Origin: JBHIBR01 sp046759145 [NCBI: Nitrospinota bacterium]
GTDB lineage: Bacteria > UBA8248
Assembly: GCA_046759145.1 (NCBI GenBank)
Contig: JBHIBR010000025.1
Span: forward strand, 1 to 11,248
Direction: 5' to 3'
DNA: 11,248 nt
The notes beneath the pieces were generated by a model that was given only the letters and a program-made list of their open reading frames with translations, was not told the DNA's origin and ran no database searches. This document shows, piece after piece, positions 1 through 11,248 of this stretch. Position 1 is the stretch's first letter. Every line of letters starts with the position of its first letter. Made by a program: the position numbers and the translations under genes.

Positions 1-2447
<2,447 letters not shown>

Positions 2448-2477
2448 GAGCCCGCTTGCCCGCCGCGGAGCGGCCCC

Positions 2478-2507
2478 TTGACACCCGCGGCCGCTGCTCC
2501 GTAGCAT
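2478..2507 (+). promoter_or_regulatory. Sigma-70-type promoter ahead of the amidase gene
   Basis: A perfect -35 hexamer TTGACA (2478-2483) is followed after 18 bases by TAGCAT (2502-2507) as -10. The same layout (TTGACA, 18 bases, a TAG-starting hexamer) recurs at 5236-5265. It lies in the 58-base gap after ahcY. Transcription would start near 2513-2515, downstream of the ATG at 2506, which argues that this ATG is not the amidase start. This is inferred from sequence only. Confidence 0.6.
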
Positions 2508-2544
2508 GGATTCTGCCCAGAGGAAGGCTGCGGGCGGTGGAGAA

Positions 2545-3840
2545 GTGAGAGTTCGGGTCCGGGAACGGCTCCTCCTCTTCGCACTAGTCCTCGCCCCGCT
2601 CGCGTGGAGTCCTTCCCTCTCCGAGGGCGCCCCTTTCGTTCGAGGCATCCGTCGCTGGAGCACTCCCCTCTACACCCGGATCGTCATCGACCTCGATGGT
2701 CCGGCCCGCTACTCGCGAGGCCATCTGCGCCGGCCCGAGCGAGTCTTCGTGGATGTGCACGGGGCGAGGTTGTCCTGGGAGTTTGGCCCCCGCGCGGTGG
2801 AGGTGGGGGATGGCCTGCTGCGGAGGGTGCGGGTGGGGTATCCCACTCCCGGGGTGGTGCGGGTGGTTCTGGACCTGGCGGTGCTCGGCAGCTACAAGGT
2901 TTTCTCCCTGGAAAACCCCTTCCGGATCGTGGTCGATGTGAAGGGGAGAGGGGGAGGGCGCGGGCGACGCGCTCTCTCTGCCCCCCCCTCGGTCTGGCCC
3001 TTCCTGCCAACGCCAGGCCCCCGGCGGGGGTCCCCAACGCGCCCGCGCGTTGGGGTGCCCCGGCGGGATGCGCCGGCCGAGCCTGAGGACCCCCGGCAGC
3101 TTTCCCTCTCGGAGCGTTTCCGACGCGGCCTCGTGACGGTGGTGATAGATCCCGGCCACGGGGGGAGGGACCCGGGAGCCATCGGCCGCTACGGGGTCCG
3201 GGAGAAGGAGGTGGCCCTCAACCTCGCCCGGATCCTCCGGCAAGAGCTTCGCCCGCGCTTCGGGCGCAACCGCATCCTCCTCACGCGGGAGGAGGACGTC
3301 TTCCTCACCCTCGAGGGGAGGACGGCCATCGCGAACGCCCGGGAGGCGGACTTCTTCCTCTCCATCCACCTGAACGCGAGCCCTCGGTCGGCCGCGCGGG
3401 GGATCGAGACCTATCTGCTGAGCGAGGCCTCCAGCCGGCGAGCCCTTGAGGTAGCGGCCCGCGAGAACGGGACCACCATGGACCAGCTCACCGACCTCCA
3501 GAAGATCCTGAGCGACCTCGTCCACCGCTCCAAGGTGGATGAGTCCACCCCCTTGGCCCAAAGGATCCAGGACAGCCTGGTCGGTCGGCTCAGCCGTCGC
3601 TACCGCGGGGTGCGCGACCTGGGGGTGAAGCGGGCCCCCTTCTATGTGCTCCTGGGGGCGCAGATGCCGAGCGTCCTGGTGGAAGCCGGCTTCGTCACCA
3701 ACCCCCTCGAGGCCCGCCGGCTGCGCTCCCGCACCTACCGTCGCGAGATCGCCCGCGCCCTCGCCGCCGGCATCCTCCGCTTCATTGAATCCCCGCAGCT
3801 GGCCGAGGCCGAGCGAACCGGGGAGTTCGCCTACCGCTGA
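2545..3840 (+). CDS. Exported N-acetylmuramoyl-L-alanine amidase with AMIN domain (AmiC type)
   Basis: Zinc amidase that cuts the bond between N-acetylmuramic acid and the L-alanine of the stem peptide in peptidoglycan, typically at the division septum. From the GTG at 2545 the protein (431 residues) begins with an arginine-rich stretch and a hydrophobic run (LLLFALVLAPLAW), a good signal peptide probably cut near SEGA. Residues about 30-130 form an AMIN domain (VRGIRRWSTPLYTRIVIDLDG to NPFRIVVDVKG), which in AmiC targets the enzyme to the septum. A low-complexity Pro/Arg linker follows, then the Amidase_3 domain. Zinc and catalytic residues are visible: His205 in DPGHGG, Glu220 in REKEV, His275 in SIHLNAS and Glu380 in VLVEAGFVTNP. 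The frame also offers an ATG at 2506 (444 residues), but it has no ribosome site, overlaps the predicted -10 box and would bury the signal peptide behind 13 polar residues. The GTG has only an imperfect site (GGTGGAG close by, AGGAAGG further up). der follows after 8 bases. Confidence 0.93.
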   Translation: MRVRVRERLLLFALVLAPLAWSPSLSEGAPFVRGIRRWSTPLYTRIVIDLDGPARYSRGHLRRPERVFVDVHGARLSWEFGPRAVEVGDGLLRRVRVGYPTPGVVRVVLDLAVLGSYKVFSLENPFRIVVDVKGRGGGRGRRALSAPPSVWPFLPTPGPRRGSPTRPRVGVPRRDAPAEPEDPRQLSLSERFRRGLVTVVIDPGHGGRDPGAIGRYGVREKEVALNLARILRQELRPRFGRNRILLTREEDVFLTLEGRTAIANAREADFFLSIHLNASPRSAARGIETYLLSEASSRRALEVAARENGTTMDQLTDLQKILSDLVHRSKVDESTPLAQRIQDSLVGRLSRRYRGVRDLGVKRAPFYVLLGAQMPSVLVEAGFVTNPLEARRLRSRTYRREIARALAAGILRFIESPQLAEAERTGEFAYR

Positions 3841-3848
3841 GGGCCGCC

Positions 3849-5189
3849 GTGGGCCTCCCCGTCGTAGCCATCATGGGCCGGGCCAACGTGGGAAAATCCA
3901 CCCTCTTCAACCGCCTCCTGGGGGAGCGAAGGGCCATCGTGGAGCCCGAGCCCCGCATCACTCGGGACAGGAACTATGGCCTCTGCGACTGGAGAGGGCG
4001 GCGATTCGTGGTGGTGGACACGGGAGGGCTCATCCCCCCTGAGGAGGACGCCCTCACCGCCCAGGTGGAGCGGCAGACCCGGGCGGCGTTGGAGGAGGCG
4101 GATGCCGTCCTCCTGCTGACCGATGCCCGCGAGGGCCTCACGCCCGCCGATGAGGCCATCGCCGGCTGGCTGCGCAAACATCCCCGCCCCCACCTCCTGG
4201 TCGTCAACAAGGTGGACCACCTCCGCCACGAACGCGCCGCCTTGGAGTTCCACCGGCTGGGGATGAGCCCCGTGTTCGCGGTCTCCGCGGAGCACGGCCG
4301 CGGGGTGGGCGACCTGCTGGACGCGCTCATCGCCGTGCTCCCCCCGCCCCCCATGGAGGTGGAGGAGGGAGGGGTCCGGGTGGCCGTGGTGGGGCGGTCC
4401 AACGTCGGGAAATCCTCCCTGGTGAACCGCCTGCTGGGCTTGGAGCGGGTGCTGGTGGACGAGCGTCCGGGGACCACCCGCGACCCTGTGGACTCGGCCA
4501 TCGAGCGGCAAGGCAAGCGCTATGTCTTCGTGGACACCGCCGGCATCCGGAGGAGGCGGCGGGCGCGCAGGGGGAAGGTGGAGGCGGTGAGCTCCCTCCT
4601 GGCCCTCCGCAGCCTGGGCCGGGCGGAGGTGGCCCTCCTCCTGCTGGACGCCTCGGAGGGGGTGACCTCGCAGGACGCCGCCATCGGGGGGCACATCGTG
4701 GAGGCGGGGGCCGGGTGCGTGCTCCTGCTCAACAAGTGGGACCTCGTGCCGAAGGAGGCCCCCACCCTGGCGCGCCACACCGAGGCCGTCCGCTCTCGCC
4801 TTCCCCACCTGGCCTTCGCGCCCATCCTATCCATCTCCGCCCTCACGGGCCTGAGGACGAGCCGCATCTTCCCCCTCATCGACCGGGTGGCGGAGGAACG
4901 GACTCGGCGCGTTCCCACCGCTGAGCTGAACCGCCAGCTCGAGGGGTGGCTGCGGGCCCAGCCTCCGCCCAGCGCGGGGGGGAAGCCCGTGAAGGTCTAC
5001 TATGCGACCCAGAGCGCCGTCGGGCCGCCCACCTTCGTCTTCTTCGCCAACCGGCCCGACCGCATCGGCCCCGCATACGAGCGCTTCCTCGAACGACGCC
5101 TGCGCGAGACCTTCGGGTTCGAGGGAACGCCCATCCGGCTCCATTTCCGCCCACGCGGAAAGGGGGAGGGAGGTGGAGGCCGCCCCTAA
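3849..5189 (+). CDS. der: Ribosome-assembly GTPase Der (EngA), double-Era-like
   Basis: Essential GTPase with two tandem G domains that helps mature the 50S ribosomal subunit. First G domain: GRANVGKS (residues 10-17), TRD in switch I, DTGG (57-60), NKVD (120-123). Second: GRSNVGKS (182-189), PGTTRD, DTAG (229-232), NKWD (295-298). The C-terminal KH-like RNA-binding domain covers about 350-432 and ends in a short basic, glycine-rich tail. Total 446 residues, normal for the family. Two small departures are visible: the first switch I reads PEPRITRD where PGVTRD is usual, and the segment after DTAG is an unusually dense arginine run (IRRRRRARRG). All nucleotide-binding residues are present, so it should be active. 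The start is a GTG 8 bases after the amidase stop, with no clear ribosome site, which suggests translational coupling. It is followed by 141 bases containing a new promoter. Confidence 0.96.
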   Translation: MGLPVVAIMGRANVGKSTLFNRLLGERRAIVEPEPRITRDRNYGLCDWRGRRFVVVDTGGLIPPEEDALTAQVERQTRAALEEADAVLLLTDAREGLTPADEAIAGWLRKHPRPHLLVVNKVDHLRHERAALEFHRLGMSPVFAVSAEHGRGVGDLLDALIAVLPPPPMEVEEGGVRVAVVGRSNVGKSSLVNRLLGLERVLVDERPGTTRDPVDSAIERQGKRYVFVDTAGIRRRRRARRGKVEAVSSLLALRSLGRAEVALLLLDASEGVTSQDAAIGGHIVEAGAGCVLLLNKWDLVPKEAPTLARHTEAVRSRLPHLAFAPILSISALTGLRTSRIFPLIDRVAEERTRRVPTAELNRQLEGWLRAQPPPSAGGKPVKVYYATQSAVGPPTFVFFANRPDRIGPAYERFLERRLRETFGFEGTPIRLHFRPRGKGEGGGGRP

Positions 5190-5235
5190 CTTCACGAAGT
5201 GCTTTAACTTTCCGCCACTAATCCCTGCCCTTAGG

Positions 5236-5265
5236 TTGACACGACGGAAGAGGCGATGCTAGTTT
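5236..5265 (+). promoter_or_regulatory. Sigma-70-type promoter ahead of the EF-G-like gene
   Basis: TTGACA (5236-5241) is separated by 18 bases from TAGTTT (5260-5265). A TG at 5257-5258 sits in the extended -10 position. Transcription would start near 5272, giving an untranslated leader of about 60 bases that ends in the ribosome site GAGAGGG (5314-5320), 10 bases before the ATG at 5331. The -10 is imperfect but the -35 is perfect and the location is intergenic. Confidence 0.6.
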
Positions 5266-5330
5266 GCGCTGCGAAGGATGGAACCCGGCGAAAGGTCTAA
5301 CCGAGGCAGTGGCGAGAGGGTTTCTTCCCC

Positions 5331-7415
5331 ATGGCCAACTACCAGGTGGCACAGGTGAGGACGGTGGGGGTGCTCGGAGAGGGGGGGAGCGGCAAGACCT
5401 CCCTTTGCGAAGCGCTCCTCTACTGTGCAGGGAGCACAGACAGGCTGGGCCGGGTGGACAATGGAAGCTCGCCCCTGGACTACGAGCCCGAGGAGATCCA
5501 GCGCCGAAGCTCCCTGGGGGCCGCCCTCTGCTTCTGCGATTGGAAAAAGCACCGGATCCATCTGGTGGACACCCCGGGCTATGCGAACTTCGCCGCAGAC
5601 ACCATCGCCGCCATGCGCGTGGTGGACGCGGCCCTGGTGGTCGTCCCCTCGTACGGGGACCTCAAGGTCCAGAGCGAAAAGGTGTGGGGTTGGGCGCGGG
5701 AGGAGGGGATCCCTGCTTTGGCGTTCGTGACCGCCATGGACCACGAGCGGGCGGACTTCTCGGGGGCGTTGGAGCGGGCGCAGAAGGCCTTCGGCGCGCG
5801 CATGTTGCCCTTCCAGCTCCCCCTCCGGGTGGGGGGGGCGTCCGGGGGGATCGTGGACCTGGTGACGGGGAAGGCCTTCCGGTACGCGGGGGATGAGAGC
5901 GGGCGGTTTGAAGAGGTTCCGGTGCCCGATGAAATCGAGGGGGAAGTGGAAACGGCCCGGGGCAATCTCACCGAAGCGGCAGCCGAGACGGACGACGCCC
6001 TCCTGGAGAAATACCTCGAAGGGGGAGGGCTCTCCCCCGAAGAGGTCCGGACGGGCCTGCGGAAGGGCGTCCTGGGGGGGAGTTTCTGCCCGGTCTTTTG
6101 CGGTTCCGGCTTGAAAAACGTCGGAGCGGCCCACCTCCTGGATGCCCTCCTCGCCTTCGCCCCCACCCCGGCCGAGCGCGAACTCCCCGCCGGGAAGCGG
6201 CCAGGGGCCGAGGAGAGGGTCGCCATCGCGGGCGACGCGGGGGAGCCCTTCTCCGGCCTCGTCTTCAAGACCGTCGTCGACCCCTTCGCGGGGAAGCTGA
6301 ACCTCTTCCGGGTGTTCTCGGGCTCGCCCCAGGCGGACTCCTCGGTCCTCAACGCCAGCCGGGGCGAGCGGGAGCGTCTCGGGCAGCTCTACCTCCTCCT
6401 CGGAAAGAACCAGAAGCCCACCAGGGTGCTCGTCCCGGGCGAGCTGGGGGCGGTGGCGAAGCTCAAGGTGACCGCCACGGGCGACACCCTCTGCGAGGAG
6501 AAGCGGCCGGTCTCCTTCGAGCCCATCCGGTTCCCCGAGCCCGCCATCTCCTTCGCCGTCTCCCCGAAGTCCAAGGGCGACGAGGAGAAGTTGAGCACCG
6601 GCCTGGGGCGTCTTCTCGAGGAGGACCGCGCCCTGCGCGTCGGCCGCGACCCCCAGACGAAGGAGCTCCTGGTCTCCGGCATGGGGGCCCTGCACGTTGA
6701 GGTGGTGATAGAGCGTTTGCGGCGGAAGTTCAACGTGGCTGTGGAGCTCAAGACCCCGCGCGTGCCTTACAAGGAGACCATCCGGGGGACCGCCAAGGTG
6801 CAGGGGAAGTACAAGAAGCAGACGGGCGGCCGGGGCCAATATGGCGATACCTGGGTCGAGGTAGAGCCCCTCCCCCGAGGGAAGGGTTTCGAGTTCGTGG
6901 ACAGGATTGTGGGGGGCGTCATCCCGAGGCAGTTCATCCCCGCCGTGGAGAAGGGCATCGTAGAAGCCATGGGATCGGGCCCCCTTGCGGGCTACCCTGT
7001 CACGGACGTGAGGGTCACCCTCTACGATGGCTCCTACCACAGTGTGGATTCCTCCGAGCTCGCCTTCAAGATCGCCGGCTCGGTGGGGTTCAAGAAGGGG
7101 GTGATGGGATCCAGGCCCGGGCTCCTGGAGCCCATCATGAACCTCGAGGTCACGGTGCCCGACGAGATGATGGGCGACATCATCGGGGACTTGAACGCCC
7201 GGCGGGGCCGGGTCCTCGGGGTGGTGGCGGCCGAAGGCCGGCAAATCATCAGGGCGCAGGTGCCGATGGCGGAGGTGCTCACCTATGACTCGGCCCTGCG
7301 CTCCATGACGGGAGGGAGGGGGGACTTCACCGTGGAGTTCTCCCATTACGAGGAGGTACCAGCCCAGGTCGCCGAGAAGATCATCGCCCAGGCGAACGCC
7401 CGCAGGGAGCAATAG
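5331..7415 (+). CDS. Elongation factor G-like translational GTPase (EF-G-2 type, fusA paralogue)
   Basis: Ribosome-dependent translational GTPase with the full EF-G domain set. G domain: P-loop GEGGSGKT (residues 16-23), switch II DTPGYANF (80-87) and a G4 box reading TAMD (134-137). Domain II follows near residue 300. Domain IV contains GKYKKQTGGRGQYGDTW and YHSVDSSELAFKIAGSVGFKKG, and domain V begins at LLEPIMNLEVTVPDEMMGDIIGDLNARRGR. At 694 residues it is full length. It resembles Thermus EF-G-2 and the cd04170-like bacterial subgroup rather than the main EF-G: the subgroup has GYxDF in place of GHVDF, so Tyr84 replaces the usual His. The TAMD box is a further departure, because the Asn and Lys of NKxD that support guanine binding are missing and only the Asp remains. 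Canonical fusA normally sits with rpsL, rpsG and tuf, which are absent here, so a second true fusA is expected elsewhere. First gene of a unit with its own promoter; the SPOR gene follows after 12 bases. Confidence 0.93.
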   Translation: MANYQVAQVRTVGVLGEGGSGKTSLCEALLYCAGSTDRLGRVDNGSSPLDYEPEEIQRRSSLGAALCFCDWKKHRIHLVDTPGYANFAADTIAAMRVVDAALVVVPSYGDLKVQSEKVWGWAREEGIPALAFVTAMDHERADFSGALERAQKAFGARMLPFQLPLRVGGASGGIVDLVTGKAFRYAGDESGRFEEVPVPDEIEGEVETARGNLTEAAAETDDALLEKYLEGGGLSPEEVRTGLRKGVLGGSFCPVFCGSGLKNVGAAHLLDALLAFAPTPAERELPAGKRPGAEERVAIAGDAGEPFSGLVFKTVVDPFAGKLNLFRVFSGSPQADSSVLNASRGERERLGQLYLLLGKNQKPTRVLVPGELGAVAKLKVTATGDTLCEEKRPVSFEPIRFPEPAISFAVSPKSKGDEEKLSTGLGRLLEEDRALRVGRDPQTKELLVSGMGALHVEVVIERLRRKFNVAVELKTPRVPYKETIRGTAKVQGKYKKQTGGRGQYGDTWVEVEPLPRGKGFEFVDRIVGGVIPRQFIPAVEKGIVEAMGSGPLAGYPVTDVRVTLYDGSYHSVDSSELAFKIAGSVGFKKGVMGSRPGLLEPIMNLEVTVPDEMMGDIIGDLNARRGRVLGVVAAEGRQIIRAQVPMAEVLTYDSALRSMTGGRGDFTVEFSHYEEVPAQVAEKIIAQANARREQ

Positions 7416-7427
7416 GACAGGGCAGCC

Positions 7428-8564
7428 ATGGCGAAAGATGTGAACCTGCTGGACGACGACGAGGGGGAAGGCCTGGCCGGGCCGGGCGAGGGGGGCCGGA
7501 AGGGAGGGGGCGCGCTCAAGCTGGTCCTCATCGGATTGGTGTTGGTCGGCCTGGTTGGGGGAAGTGCGGCGGCAAGCTACTACTTCTGGTGGGAGCCCCG
7601 CCAGCGGGCGAAGCTCCTGGCCCAGAAGCGGGCGGAGGAGAGGCACCGCCGAGAGACTGCGCAGGAGAGGCGCCGTCGAGAGATTGAAGAGGTACGGTAC
7701 CGCCGAGAGCTTGAAGAGGCGCGGCGCGAGGCGGAGCGGCGCCAGCGGGAGCTGGAGGCCCTCCGACGGGAGCTGGAGGCGCTCCGGCGGGTGCGGGAGA
7801 TGGCAGCCGCCCCCAAGCCCCCCGAAGGGACGAAACCCGCCGCCACCGCGCCCAACTCCCCCGAGGCGGCCAAGCCCCTCATCCAGCCCACCCCCCCCGA
7901 AGAAAAAGGAGCCCCCGCCCGGGCTGCACCCCGCAAAGGCGAAAAGCTCATCTCGAAGGAGGCGCGACCTCCCTCGGCGCCCAAGGCTGCGACCCCCCCT
8001 GGCCGGCCGCCCGAGAAGGCTGTTAAGCCTGTGCGGCCCAAGCGGCCGAAAACGGAGCGCGCCCCTCCGCTAGCCCCCCGGCGAGTCGCCCGAGGGCCGC
8101 GCGCCTCCGCCGCGACCTACGCAGTTCGGGTCGCGGCCTGTGTGACCGAGTCCTGCGTGCGGGTGGTGCGAGAGAAGATGGAGGCCAAGGGGATATCTAC
8201 CTATGTGGGCCGAGGCAAAGCGAGGCTCCCGCTGCTGGATGTGGTGGCGGGGGATTTTTCGAGCCGGCAACAAGCGGAGAAGCTTGCTGGGCGGATCCGC
8301 CGCAAGGGGCTCAAGGCAAAAGTCGTCCCCCTGGGGGACAGCCGGTTCCGCGTGAGCCTGGGTGCGTTCCTGATGGCCGAGGACGCCCACATCCAGCTCG
8401 ACCGGCTGGAGGAGGCGGGTTTCTCCGGCAGCCTGGAGACCGGGAGGGTATTTGCCCCGCTGCGGGAGGTGCGGGTGGGACGCTTCGCCACCCGCGCCGA
8501 GGCGCTCGCGGAGAGGCGCAAGCTCCGCCAACGGGGCATCCCCTCCGTGGTGGTCCGGCGGTAG
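7428..8564 (+). CDS. Membrane-anchored SPOR-domain protein with charged coiled-coil stalk
   Basis: Not a named orthologue, but the architecture is clear. Residues 1-29 are acidic and then glycine-rich (cytoplasmic), residues about 30-52 are one membrane segment (ALKLVLIGLVLVGLVGGSAAASYY), and residues 60-125 are a highly charged Arg/Glu helix, probably coiled coil, built of short repeats. Residues 128-228 form a Pro/Ala/Lys-rich linker suited to crossing the periplasm or wall. From residue 230 (TYAVRVAACVTESCVRVVREKM...) a SPOR domain follows, with a second SPOR-like half (RFRVSLGAF... to LREVRVGRFATRAEALAERRKLRQRGI). SPOR domains bind glycan strands stripped of stem peptides at the division site, the product of amidases such as the one at 2545. 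Two cysteines in ACVTESC could form a disulfide. Start ATG is 12 bases after the EF-G-like stop. Function beyond septal peptidoglycan binding is inference. Confidence 0.88.
   Translation: MAKDVNLLDDDEGEGLAGPGEGGRKGGGALKLVLIGLVLVGLVGGSAAASYYFWWEPRQRAKLLAQKRAEERHRRETAQERRRREIEEVRYRRELEEARREAERRQRELEALRRELEALRRVREMAAAPKPPEGTKPAATAPNSPEAAKPLIQPTPPEEKGAPARAAPRKGEKLISKEARPPSAPKAATPPGRPPEKAVKPVRPKRPKTERAPPLAPRRVARGPRASAATYAVRVAACVTESCVRVVREKMEAKGISTYVGRGKARLPLLDVVAGDFSSRQQAEKLAGRIRRKGLKAKVVPLGDSRFRVSLGAFLMAEDAHIQLDRLEEAGFSGSLETGRVFAPLREVRVGRFATRAEALAERRKLRQRGIPSVVVRR
7638..7718 (+). repeat. Three imperfect 27-base tandem repeats inside the SPOR gene
   Basis: Three in-frame 27-base units (7638-7664, 7665-7691, 7692-7718) encode ERHRRETAQ, ERRRREIEE and VRYRRELEE. 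Each contains the core of CCG or CGC codons for Arg-Arg-Glu (CGCCGAGAG or CGTCGAGAG). They build the charged helical stalk and probably arose by slippage or unequal exchange. Confidence 0.75.
7746..7787 (+). repeat. 21-base direct repeat pair inside the SPOR gene
   Basis: Two adjacent 21-base copies (7746-7766 and 7767-7787), differing at only two bases, both encode the heptad RELEALR. The heptad length supports a coiled coil immediately before the Pro-rich linker. Confidence 0.8.
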
Positions 8565-8570
8565 GTCGCC

Positions 8571-8933
8571 ATGGGCACCGAGGCCGAGATCCCCGACAAG
8601 CTCTTCTTCAAAATCGGAGAGGTGGCGGAGATCACCGGCACCAAGCCCCACGTGCTCCGCTACTGGGAATCGGAGTTCAAGATCCTAAAGCCCGCGAAGG
8701 CCGAGTCGGGCCAGCGCGTCTACCGCCGGAAAGACGTGGAGCTTATCTTCGCCATCAAGAGGCTCCTCTATGAGGAGAATTTCACCATCGCCGGCGCCAA
8801 AAAACAGCTCCAGCGGATGCGCAGCGCAAGCAGCCGCCTCCCCGCGGTTTCGAGGCAGGAGCAGTACGGGAAGACCTTACGCCAGATCCGGAAGGAGCTG
8901 ATGGCTATCCTGGACATCTTGAATTCCAAGTGA
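8571..8933 (+). CDS. MerR-family transcriptional regulator, small, cysteine-free
   Basis: DNA-binding protein of 120 residues. Residues 12-82 form the MerR winged helix-turn-helix: [25 protein letters not shown] (recognition region with the LRYWE core), the wing with [12 protein letters not shown], then [21 protein letters not shown]-terminal helix ([20 protein letters not shown]) is the likely dimer coiled coil. There is no effector domain and not a single cysteine, so it is not a thiol or metal sensor of the classic MerR/CueR/SoxR kind. This short MerR type is common in Deltaproteobacteria, where its target is usually unknown. It begins 6 bases after the SPOR gene, so it is co-transcribed; the ribosome site (TAGGT) is weak, suggesting coupling. 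Regulation of its own operon is possible but no operator is evident. Confidence 0.9.
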
Positions 8934-9023
8934 GAGCCGGGAGACCAGGGGGCTGGCCTGCTCGAGGTGACCCATCTTCTCCGGCCCGGGATACCGGAAA
9001 CCCTAACCAGAGGCGGACCCCTC

Positions 9024-9698
9024 ATGCGGTCTCGGGGCGGCCTCCCCCGAAAAGAGCTCAAAGCGCCTGACCCCTTCCTCACCTGGAGCGGCAGGACCAT
9101 CCTCTGGGCGCGGAAAAACGCCCGTCTCCTCCTGCGGTTGCTGGTCGCAGTGGTCCTGGTGGTAGCGGGTGTCCTGAGCTACCGCGCTTACCGGGAGGCC
9201 AACCGCTTGCGGGCGGAGGAGGCCCTTTTCCAGGCGCTCGCCCTCCGCCGCCAGAGCGGGGGCAAGCAGGAGGCCCTCGACGCGCTCTCCCGACTGGTAG
9301 ACCGCTACGCGGGATACCCTGCGGGGGAGCGGGCGCGCCTTTTCCTGGGGGAACACTATTTCCAGGAGGGGCGATATCGCGAAGCGCAAGAGGCCTTCCT
9401 TGCCGCCCTCCACGGAGCCGATGGGGTGGAGGCCCAGGTCGCCCGGAGGGGCCTTGCCAAAAGCCTCGCGGCGGCCGGCCGCTGCGGCGAAGCGATCCCG
9501 CTATGGGAAGACATGATCAAGTCGGAAGGGAGGCTACCCCACCAAGACCTCTATCTGGCCGTCGGGCAGTGTTATGAAGCCACAGGCGCGACCGAGAAAG
9601 CGGTGGCGACATACCGAGAACTCCGGGAAAAACATCCGGCCAGCCCCTTCCTGAGCGCTGATTTCGAGGAAAAGGTGCGGAAGCTGGAGGGCGGCTGA
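9024..9698 (+). CDS. Membrane-anchored tetratricopeptide-repeat protein
   Basis: Protein of 225 residues from the ATG at 9024. The N-terminus (KAPDPFLTWSGRTILWARKN) precedes one membrane helix at about residues 35-52 (LLLRLLVAVVLVVAGVLS). The rest is helical TPR-like repeats facing the outside: EALDALSRLVDRYAGYPAGERARLFLGEHYFQEGRYREAQEAF, then GLAKSLAAAGRCGEAIPLWEDMI and LYLAVGQCYEATGATEKAVATYRELREKHP. This layout matches YfgM-like TPR proteins, seen at the Sec translocon or in envelope complexes; the partner here is unknown. The frame is open from a GTG at 8967 (243 residues), but that codon lacks a well-spaced ribosome site, whereas the ATG has AGAGG about 10 bases upstream. The 90-base gap after the MerR gene has short inverted repeats (for example TCCGG 8980-8984 with CCGGA 8994-8998) but no terminator or promoter that I can defend, so readthrough is likely. 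Confidence 0.82.
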   Translation: MRSRGGLPRKELKAPDPFLTWSGRTILWARKNARLLLRLLVAVVLVVAGVLSYRAYREANRLRAEEALFQALALRRQSGGKQEALDALSRLVDRYAGYPAGERARLFLGEHYFQEGRYREAQEAFLAALHGADGVEAQVARRGLAKSLAAAGRCGEAIPLWEDMIKSEGRLPHQDLYLAVGQCYEATGATEKAVATYRELREKHPASPFLSADFEEKVRKLEGG

Positions 9699-9719
9699 AA
9701 AAGCAGAAAAAAGCCGTCC
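9689..9719 (+). terminator. Hairpin over the TPR stop codon, possible weak terminator
   Basis: GGGCGGCT (9689-9696) can pair with AGCCGTCC (9712-9719), eight pairs with one G-U, around a 15-base A-rich loop. The T of the stop codon TGA is the last base of the 5' arm. No T-run follows, so it is not a standard intrinsic terminator; it may mark the 3' end of the transcript or depend on Rho. Confidence 0.35.
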
Positions 9720-9967
9720 GGGCAAGTAGAGGCTGAGCGAGAACCTGAAGTGACGATAAGATATGTTATGTAAACTATCAGTCGCATTAGCCAACGGCTC
9801 ATTCGGGTAAAGGCAGTGCCCCTCCGGCGAGCGCTCGGGGACCGGGCGCGCGGACCACTCCCAGACCTAAAATTGGCGCCTGCTTACGCGCGCCTCTTCG
9901 AGACGCCTCATTGCGGTGCCGGGCCACCCTGGAGCGAACTCCCAGCCACCTTCGGGGGAAGACAGCC
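9699..9967. other. Gene-free stretch containing the dif-like site
   Basis: No open frame here has recognisable coding character in either strand. It contains an AT-rich island at about 9749-9790, the dif-like site within it, a tiny hairpin AGCC-AAC-GGCT (9789-9799) and the self-complementary CGAGCGCTCG near 9830. No tRNA, promoter or transposon end was found. With the remnant and leader that follow, the span without an intact gene is 9699-10312. Confidence 0.6.
9749..9776 (+). other. dif: Candidate dif/XerCD recombination site
   Basis: The 28 bases have the exact architecture of a dif site: left arm AGTGACGATAA (9749-9759), 6-base centre GATATG (9760-9765) and right arm TTATGTAAACT (9766-9776). 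The inner ends ATAA and TTAT form the inverted repeat contacted by XerC and XerD. From memory, the right (XerD) arm equals that of Bacillus subtilis dif in all 11 bases and matches 9 of 11 in Escherichia coli dif (TTATGTTAAAT). The left arm is more divergent, as is usual for the XerC side. It is AT-rich in a GC-rich setting and lies between genes. XerCD would resolve chromosome dimers here at division, so the site would mark the replication terminus. It could instead be the attachment copy of an Xer-using mobile element. No genome context is available to decide. Confidence 0.6.
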
Positions 9968-10126
9968 GTGGCCACCCTGATTCGCGCGGGCCAGTTGAGC
10001 GACGGGACAGGCGGGGAGCCCATTCCTCAAGGCTGCCTCCTCATCGAGACGGGCCGCATCCGGAGTGTAGGGCCCTCCGGGGAGGTTCAGGCCCCGCCGG
10101 GGCTGAGGTATGGGGCGGTCCTATGA
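9968..10126 (+). pseudogene. Amidohydrolase N-terminal remnant
   Basis: From the GTG at 9968, which has a purine-rich site (GGGGGAAG) upstream, 52 codons read as the start of a metal-dependent amidohydrolase of the imidazolonepropionase/dihydroorotase-like superfamily: TLIRAGQLSDGTGG, then CLLIETGRIRSVGP. This is the first beta-sandwich segment, with the usual RAG-x-L-x-DGTGG and LIE-x-GRI-x-x-VGP wording. The frame stops at 10126 just where the VIDL...LPGLIDxHxH metal-binding segment should begin. None of the three + frames after it restores that motif, so more than 300 residues including all metal ligands are absent. I infer a deletion remnant, not a functional short protein. It starts 192 bases after the dif-like site. 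A 71-codon version from 9911 adds only unconvincing residues. Confidence 0.6.
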
Positions 10127-10165
10127 CAGCCATTCCGAGAGGGTGATCGAACGCAGAGGGGCCAG

Positions 10166-10202
10166 GCCTACTAGCGGGGGTGACCCGGCAGCCCTCGTAG
10201 GC
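10166..10202 (+). promoter_or_regulatory. Long imperfect hairpin between the remnant and the cold-shock gene
   Basis: GCCTAC (10166-10171) pairs with GTAGGC (10197-10202), and after a 4-base bulge GGGGG (10176-10180) pairs with CCCTC (10192-10196), giving 11 pairs with one G-U. No T-run follows directly; a T6 run occurs about 45 bases later. It could be a terminator remnant, a leader element of the cold-shock mRNA or part of a small RNA. Confidence 0.35.
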
Positions 10203-10254
10203 ACCCAACCTCAAGGTCCCGAAAGGATGCGCAGTTGTTGCTCGGTTTTTTGGG

Positions 10255-10274
10255 CAAGGACTGAAGGGTCCTTG
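10255..10274 (+). promoter_or_regulatory. Perfect 7-bp hairpin in the leader of the cold-shock gene
   Basis: CAAGGAC (10255-10261) and GTCCTTG (10268-10274) are perfect complements around a 6-base loop. The stem ends 17 bases before the strong ribosome site AGGAGGGAGGTGG (10292-10304) and 38 bases before the ATG. Cold-shock genes are often controlled through leader structure, so a role in translation is plausible but inferred. Confidence 0.4.
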
Positions 10275-10312
10275 TGGTTGTAACCCACGAAAGGAGGGAG
10301 GTGGTCCCAGGC

Positions 10313-10519
10313 ATGCCAAGGGGTGTCGTCAAATGGTTCAACGAGTCCAAGGGCTACGGGTTCATCAGTCAGGAAGGCGGACCCGACGTTTTCGTCCACT
10401 ACTCGGCCATCGTCGGTGAGGGGTTTAAGGCGCTGCGAGAAGGGGAAGTGGTCGAGTTTGAAACTGAAAAGGATCCCAAGGGGCTGAAAGCAGTCAACGT
10501 AAAGCCAATCGTTCCTTAG
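10313..10519 (+). CDS. Cold-shock-domain protein (CspA family)
   Basis: A 68-residue single cold-shock domain, a beta-barrel that binds single-stranded RNA and DNA and melts RNA structure. It shows [13 protein letters not shown] with RNP1 (KGYGFI, residues 13-18) and RNP2 (DVFVHY, residues 25-30), then [30 protein letters not shown]. All stacking aromatics of the family (Trp8, Phe9, Tyr15, Phe17, Phe27, His29, Tyr30) are present. The frame is open from 10274, but the ATG at 10313 gives the normal family start ([10 protein letters not shown]) and is preceded at about 10 bases by an excellent ribosome site, AGGAGGGAGGTGG, which predicts high expression. It stands alone, with 186 bases of non-coding leader containing two hairpins, so it is probably monocistronic. 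I could not find a convincing promoter. Confidence 0.95.
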
Positions 10520-10667: not shown

Positions 10668-11248
10668 ATGGACAACCCTTTCGCCCCACAGAGCGCGGTT
10701 TTCTACCGCAACCCTCACCGCCGTTACCCCGCAGCCGCGCGGGGCGAGGGGGTCTACATCTACGACGCCGAGGGGAAGCGCTACCTCGACGCCTCGGGCG
10801 GATCCGCCGTCGTCACCATCGGGCACGGGGTGAAGGAGATCGCGGCCGCCGCCGCCGCGCAGATGGATCAGATCTCCTTCAGCCACGGCTCCCAGTTCAC
10901 GACCCCTGCCCAGGAAGAACTCGCCCGGCGGATGGCCGCCCTCGCGCCCGGCGACTGCAAGCGCTTCTACCCGCTGACGAGCGGCTCCGAGGCGGTCGAA
11001 GCCGCCTTTAAGCTCGCCCGCCAGTACCACCTCGAGCGGGGAAAACCAGGCAAGCGCCTCATCGTCTCGCGCCACCAGAGCTACCACGGCGCGACGCTCG
11101 GTGCCCTCTCGGCCACCGGCTTCCATTCCCGGCGGCACAAGTACCTGCCGATGCTCCTGCCCTTCCCCCACATCTCGCCGTGCCACTGCTACCGCTGCCC
11201 GTTCGGCAAGACCTATCCCGAATGCGGCGTCGCGTGCGCGGAAGAGCT
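10668..11248 (+). CDS. Class III PLP-dependent aminotransferase, 3' end cut off
   Basis: The first 193 codons of a fold-type I transaminase of the omega-aminotransferase group (the family of BioA, GabT, ArgD and beta-alanine:pyruvate transaminases), running off the window in frame. Seen: FYRNPHRRYPAARGEGVYIYDAEGKRYLDASGGSAVVTIGHG (substrate-site N-terminal part), TSGSEAVEAAFKLARQY with Ser105-Gly106-Ser107 as the PLP phosphate loop, and RHQSYHGATLGALSATG with Tyr139-His140 stacking on the PLP ring. The PLP lysine lies beyond the end. Residues 172-190 hold five cysteines (C-H-C-Y-R-C, then two more), a feature I recall from a subgroup often annotated as aspartate aminotransferase family protein; amino donor and acceptor are unknown. 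ATG 10668 has the ribosome site GAGAGGAAAGG just upstream. A TATACT at 10594-10599 is the only promoter-like hint and lacks a -35. Confidence 0.92.
   Translation, partial: MDNPFAPQSAVFYRNPHRRYPAAARGEGVYIYDAEGKRYLDASGGSAVVTIGHGVKEIAAAAAAQMDQISFSHGSQFTTPAQEELARRMAALAPGDCKRFYPLTSGSEAVEAAFKLARQYHLERGKPGKRLIVSRHQSYHGATLGALSATGFHSRRHKYLPMLLPFPHISPCHCYRCPFGKTYPECGVACAEE

What the first reader, a model, noticed from the sequence alone, without database searches (positions are those of the whole stretch)
9749..9776. Candidate chromosomal dif site, or attachment site of an Xer-using element
A 28-base sequence with the 11-6-11 layout of dif sits in a gene-free gap of a GC-rich chromosome. Its right arm TTATGTAAACT agrees in all 11 bases with the XerD arm of Bacillus subtilis dif as I remember it, and its inner ends ATAA and TTAT are the expected inverted repeat. 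If real it places this window at the replication terminus and defines the dif sequence for this lineage. The neighbouring gene remnant also fits a place where Xer-dependent elements come and go.
Basis: partly seen in the sequence, partly recalled or inferred. Interest (0 to 1): 0.78.

Follow-up and report, generated by a model that had tools for sequence, protein, structure and literature searches.

The report
Chromosome dif site of uncultured bacteria
A 28-base sequence in the window is almost certainly the site where a poorly known group of uncultured bacteria separates joined chromosome copies before dividing; it is an ordinary member of a well-known kind, found beside the same gene in the relatives examined.

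Summary
Observation confirmed; main interpretation supported. Window 9749-9776 (AGTGACGATAA-GATATG-TTATGTAAACT) has the 11-6-11 dif layout, and its right arm equals the B. subtilis XerD arm printed by Kono 2011. No genome is held for the window, so relatives were tested. Of 18 genomes in one phylum-level group, 17 have the site, 16 exactly once. Its 22-base core averages 1.84 bits per column against 0.28-0.29 in flanks. GC skew turns 5-19 kb from the site on three of four long contigs; the fourth is uninformative. The KOPS-like motif GGGNAGGG points at the site from both sides on all four. XerC- and XerD-type recombinases are both found in 15 of 18 genomes, FtsK gamma in 16 of 18. The same TPR gene lies upstream in 17 of 17 relatives with the site and in the window, unlike proteobacterial dif; but a second region is also collinear, so this may be general gene-order stability. 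No evidence for a mobile element was found. A canonical dif, new for its lineage.

The parts
9749..9776 (+). dif site, 28 bp
   Evidence: Sequence; one match in 16 of 18 relatives; matrix score and conservation
9749..9759 (+). XerC-side arm AGTGACGATAA; outer 4 bases variable, inner MYGATAA conserved in relatives
   Evidence: Column conservation; assignment to XerC by likeness to dif of E. coli and B. subtilis (sequences)
9760..9765 (+). central region GATATG
   Evidence: among 17 relatives its columns 1, 5 and 6 vary, the other three are fixed
9766..9776 (+). XerD-side arm TTATGTAAACT
   Evidence: Identical to the B. subtilis arm; TTATGTHAAAT in 17 of 17 relatives, so the window's tenth base (C) differs from all of them
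8967..9698 (+). TPR gene immediately upstream, the constant neighbour of dif
   Evidence: Pfam TPR_21 and TPR_16; matched upstream of the site in 17 of 17 relatives that have the site
8571..8933 (+). MerR-family gene, conserved neighbour
   Evidence: Pfam MerR_1; on the same contig, upstream, in 16 of 17 relatives
1..8564 (+). metK (cut by the window start), ahcY, AMIN/amidase, der, EF-G-like fusA2 and SPOR genes: left flank, same order in relatives as far as their contigs reach
   Evidence: amidase and SPOR by Pfam; the other gene names are recognised from sequence, without a family scan
10313..10519 (+). cold-shock protein gene to the right of dif; no match within the relatives' right flanks that were held
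   Evidence: Pfam CSD
10674..11246 (+). class-III aminotransferase, cut by the window end; no match in the relatives' right flanks that were held
   Evidence: Pfam Aminotran_3

Best explanation
The site is the chromosomal dif of this lineage. XerC is expected to bind the left arm and XerD the right arm on the two dif copies of a chromosome dimer at the septum. FtsK is expected to be steered there by KOPS-like GGGNAGGG sequences that point at the site from both sides, and to activate XerD through its gamma domain; XerD then XerC exchange strands and give two monomers. Shown here, in relatives: sequence, copy number, terminus position, KOPS polarity, presence of the proteins in most genomes. Inferred from the E. 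coli and Vibrio systems: binding, strand exchange and order of cleavage. Inferred also: that all this holds for the window's own genome.
For: Right arm identical to B. subtilis dif. 17 of 18 genomes carry the core at up to 3 mismatches, 16 exactly once; reversed-pattern control 0 in 18. Core columns average 1.84 bits against 0.28 and 0.29 in flanks. GC skew left/right of the site: G012 +0.061/-0.019, G013 +0.052/-0.010, G001 +0.057/+0.005, with the cumulative maximum within the contig 19.1, 5.2 and 5.4 kb from the site. GGGNAGGG forward/reverse, left then right: G012 65/12, 4/27; G013 84/27, 8/29; G001 72/23, 2/8; G011 88/40, 2/13. The polarity change point falls in an interval that holds the site in 3 of 4 contigs and ends 0.8 kb short of it in G011; pooled, GGGNAGGG (386 toward, 118 away) ranks first of 56 motifs of the same make-up, the middle one having 256 to 144. 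Both a XerC-type and a XerD-type protein in 15 of 18 genomes; FtsK gamma in 16 of 18.
Against: No genome is held for the window, so nothing beyond its 11 kb was tested in it; KOPS counts inside it are too few to use (6/3 left, 0/2 right). In G011 the skew is weak (+0.006/-0.028) and its cumulative maximum lies 100 kb from the site; G001 has only 13.5 kb to the right of the site. G004 has no copy; its MerR contig ends before the place where the site is expected. G018 has no Xer match, G003 and G006 show only one strong Xer protein, G018 and G002 have no FtsK gamma match; all are drafts of unstated completeness. 0 of 18 pass the curated XerC cut-off and 13 of 18 the XerD one (2 and 4 of 14 control genomes do). 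G021 has a second, poorer match. The window's right arm differs at one base from all 17 relatives.
Confidence: 0.94

Rival explanations
1. It is the attachment site of an integrated element that uses host Xer recombinases (IMEX or dif-phage), or the junction left by one.
For: 61 IMG/VR stretches hold a generic dif-like site against 2 for the reversed pattern, so such sites are common in viral contigs. One of them, L268, has exactly the 22-base core of G011 and G016. Contigs of G014, G015 and G017 end 28-71 bp right of the site, which could reflect strain variation there.
Against: One match only in 16 of 17 positive relatives; no second copy in the window; none of the 61 stretches matches a window protein or has the window's core, and the proteins of L268 match none of the relatives' flanks; window 9600-10320 has no match in the phage collection.
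Confidence: 0.03
2. It is an operator of the neighbouring MerR-family regulator, or another cis element of the conserved gene cluster, resembling dif by chance.
For: It lies downstream of the same MerR and TPR genes in the relatives, and it is partly palindromic.
Against: It is about 0.7-3 kb downstream of the end of the merR match, not in front of merR. The GC-skew turn and the KOPS reversal lie at or near it. Of 12 genomes outside the group, 9 carry a 19-base degenerate core at up to 1 mismatch, and none of the 12 short loci around those matches has a window protein.
Confidence: 0.02
3. Chance resemblance in a GC-rich gap.
For: The window alone offers only the 28-mer itself.
Against: Matrix score 47.9 against at most 8.8 in 30 random windows; same position in relatives.
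Confidence: 0.005

Closest known systems
Bacillus subtilis dif (as printed in PMC3025954)
   Same: 11-6-11 layout; XerD arm identical in 11 of 11 bases
   Different: XerC arm and centre differ; different phylum
E. coli and other proteobacterial dif with XerCD, FtsK gamma and KOPS
   Same: Layout, terminus position, low GC, intergenic, conserved XerD arm; GGGNAGGG, the motif named for Vibrio 'in a similar way' to E. coli (PMC5357621, passage), points at the site in relatives
   Different: Proteobacterial dif is described as having no apparent specific genetic environment (PMC2731167, passage); here the TPR gene lies upstream in 17 of 17 relatives with the site. xerD lies 42-45 kb from dif in four genomes, whereas Kono 2011 reports xerD near the origin and xerC mostly near dif (passage).
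difSL/XerS and difH/XerH single-recombinase systems (recalled, and named in passages)
   Same: Function
   Different: Here 15 of 18 genomes have two distinct Xer proteins and the site is of the canonical XerCD type

Membership tests
canonical XerCD dif | 28 bp, two 11-bp arms around 6 bp, inner inverted repeat, conserved XerD arm | tested here: met
canonical XerCD dif | single copy per chromosome | tested here: met
   In relatives only: 16 of 18 with one match, 1 with an extra 3-mismatch match, 1 with none. The window's own genome is not held.
canonical XerCD dif | near the GC-skew turn of the terminus | tested here: met
   In relatives only: 3 of 4 contigs, 5-19 kb away; in G011 the skew is weak and the maximum 100 kb away
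canonical XerCD dif | non-coding, lower GC than surroundings | tested here: met
   Between the TPR stop at 9698 and the cold-shock start at 10313; 8 of 28 G+C
canonical XerCD dif | XerC and XerD present | tested here: met
   In relatives only: both types in 15 of 18, one strong Xer protein in G003 and G006, none in G018; XerD cut-off passed in 13, XerC cut-off in 0
canonical XerCD dif | FtsK with gamma domain; KOPS converge on the site | tested here: met
   In relatives only: FtsK gamma in 16 of 18; GGGNAGGG points at the site from both sides in 4 of 4 contigs, change-point interval holding the site in 3 and ending 0.8 kb short in 1
canonical XerCD dif | XerC/XerD binding and recombination | not testable with these tools
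   Needs bench work
Xer-using mobile element (IMEX) attachment site | two dif-like copies flanking an insert with mobility genes | tested here: not met
   One copy in the window and in 16 of 17 positive relatives; no phage match

The most novel reading that the evidence does not exclude
The setting of dif was fixed before the window's lineage split from the 18 relatives and has been kept since, because gene order along much of the chromosome is under unusual constraint in this group. G011 and G013, whose matched ORFs are about 54% identical at the median, are collinear in every matched ORF over about 170 kb left of dif and also in a second region.
Probability: 0.35. Interest if true: 0.5.

Novelty: new member of a known kind. 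Interest (0 to 1): 0.3.

Why it matters
It gives a dif core (GATAABATAYRTTATGTHAAAT in 17 relatives; the window ends in AAACT) for an uncultured phylum-level group; no paper pairing 'dif site' with Tectomicrobia or Entotheonella was found in the library. It marks the replication terminus on draft genomes, orients contigs, and offers a landmark for asking why gene order seems so stable in this group.

Tried and rejected
The attachment-site reading was tested and not supported. A MerR-operator reading was considered because of the constant neighbour and set aside on skew, KOPS and occurrence outside the group. A first, loose pattern at up to 3 mismatches was useless for counting: in 9 genomes the backward control gave as many matches or more in most (for example G001 12 and 10 against 27 and 21); the longer core pattern replaced it.

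I first took the fixed neighbourhood for something special to the terminus. A second region (G011:C35 against G013:C6) was also collinear, 45 of 45 matched ORFs (of 122) against 60 of 60 (of 118) left of dif, so this was dropped. That second region was chosen because it holds xerC in both genomes, so it is not a random control, and the ORF picker includes antisense frames.

Contig ends near the site were followed with an RtcB-like (name recalled) protein start from G013: no match in G014, G004, G015 or G017, which in drafts says nothing firm. Rfam at gathering thresholds gave nothing in the window.

Full report
What is there. Window 9749-9776 reads AGTGACGATAA GATATG TTATGTAAACT. The right arm is found once in the window at up to 2 mismatches and equals the XerD arm of B. 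subtilis dif as printed by Kono et al. 2011 (PMC3025954, passages seen). It lies 50 bp after a TPR gene (8967-9698) and before a cold-shock gene (10313-10519); an 86-codon mechanical ORF on the minus strand crosses it. No genome is held for the window.

Relatives. Six loci of the group (L001-L005 and L050, 58-62% identity) are draft genomes labelled Tectomicrobia, Nitrospinota or simply bacterium. The search tool places 18 held genomes in the phylum of G001 and does not name it. In a tree of the EF-G-like protein with 10 outside rows, the window is sister to all 18 (support 100/100), on a long branch of unusual composition, so its depth is unsure.

Copy number and conservation. The core GATAAGATATGTTATGTAAAAT at up to 3 mismatches is in 17 of 18 genomes: 16 with one match, G021 with two (the second at 3 mismatches), G004 with none; the pattern read backwards gives 0 in all 18. 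In the 17 aligned sites the 22 core columns average 1.84 bits against 0.28 and 0.29 in the flanks, and the first four bases of the XerC arm are variable. The window site scores 47.9 with this matrix; 30 random windows reach at most 8.8.

Terminus. Four long contigs were fetched. GC skew left and right of the site is +0.061/-0.019 in G012, +0.052/-0.010 in G013, +0.057/+0.005 in G001 (only 13.5 kb on the right) and +0.006/-0.028 in G011. The cumulative maximum within the contig lies 19.1, 5.2 and 5.4 kb from the site in the first three, 100 kb away in G011. Carnoy and Roten 2009 give a median of 7.3 kb with quartiles of 2.1 and 21.4 kb in Proteobacteria (PMC2731167, passages). GGGNAGGG, the KOPS-like motif named for Vibrio in PMC5357621 (passages), points at the site from both sides in all four contigs. 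Its change-point interval holds the site in three (intervals of 3-5 kb) and runs from 2.3 to 0.8 kb left of it in G011; support is weakest in G001 (log-likelihood gain 6.1). Among 56 motifs of the same make-up it has the strongest polarity, 386 to 118; G-rich motifs are polar in general (middle motif 256 to 144), so only part of the signal is particular to it.

Machinery. XerD-model matches at E 0.001 occur in 17 of 18 genomes, 13 above the curated cut-off; XerC-model matches in 17 of 18, none above the cut-off, which 2 of 14 control genomes pass. Counting strong matches (over 250 bits) by place, 15 genomes have two proteins, one scoring better with each model. G003 and G006 have one, of XerC type, and G018 none. 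One of the two in G002 lies at a contig start and is partial. FtsK gamma is in 16 of 18. In G001, G011, G012 and G013 xerD lies 42-45 kb left of dif on the same strand.

Setting. A match to the TPR gene lies upstream of the site in 17 of 17 positive relatives, ending 36-167 bp away in 15 and about 1.25 kb away in G002 and G011; MerR is on the same contig in 16 of 17. Of the 80 EF-G loci I count 7 inside the group; of the 73 others, 59 reach 4 kb downstream and none has a dif-like site there at up to 1 mismatch, and the TPR protein matches none of the 73 (5 of the 7 inside). Pairs sharing a protein match within 5 kb are 152 of 153 on the left and 46 of 105 on the right; the window, with only 1.5 kb on the right, shares none there. 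This differs from the 'no apparent specific genetic environment' of proteobacterial dif. However, G011 and G013 are collinear both left of dif (60 of 60 matched ORFs, of 118) and in a second region chosen for its xerC gene (45 of 45, of 122); right of dif 3 of 17 ORFs match. The fixed setting is therefore best explained by general gene-order stability, measured here in one pair of genomes and two large regions.

Mobile elements. A generic dif-like pattern occurs in 61 IMG/VR stretches against 2 for the reversed pattern. None of the 61 stretches, which are parts of the contigs in many cases, encodes a match to the window's proteins. None has the window's core; L268 has exactly the core of G011 and G016, but its proteins match none of the relatives' flanks. 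Cores of this kind also occur in 9 of 12 genomes outside the group, so this is weak evidence of a link. Contigs of G014, G015 and G017 end 28-71 bp right of the site; this is unexplained and was noticed after the fact.

Literature. Searches for 'dif site' with Tectomicrobia or with Entotheonella gave 0 papers; with metagenome and candidate-phylum terms 5, and with neighbourhood terms 7, judged from listings. 'dif site' with Nitrospinota was not searched. The library holds open-licence papers only, so absence is not proof. No paper was read whole.

Verdict. A canonical dif by every feature that could be tested in relatives, very probably functional, new for its lineage and known in kind.

Noticed in passing
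G011:C38 against G012:C17 and G013:C20 (L198-L207, L145-L163, L164-L182); G011:C35 against G013:C6 (L294-L302, L303-L313): Gene order is collinear over about 170 kb left of dif and in a second region holding xerC at a median of about 54% identity of matched ORFs, which seems unusually stable for such divergence.
   Followed up: partly
G014:C121, G015:C28, G017:C43 (L134, L136, L138): Contigs end 28-71 bp to the right of the dif site in 3 of 17 relatives, possibly strain variation at dif.
   Followed up: partly
G009:C1 1261164 and 1340133 (L277, L286): The chromosome of bin47 holds two identical dif-like cores 79 kb apart in opposite orientation.
   Followed up: no
   Followed up: partly
L216-L276: 61 IMG/VR stretches carry dif-like sites against 2 for a reversed control: candidates for Xer-using phages. 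L268 has the core of G011 and G016.
   Followed up: partly
G001:C21, G011:C38, G012:C17, G013:C20: xerD lies 42-45 kb from dif, whereas Kono 2011 reports xerD near the origin (passage).
   Followed up: no
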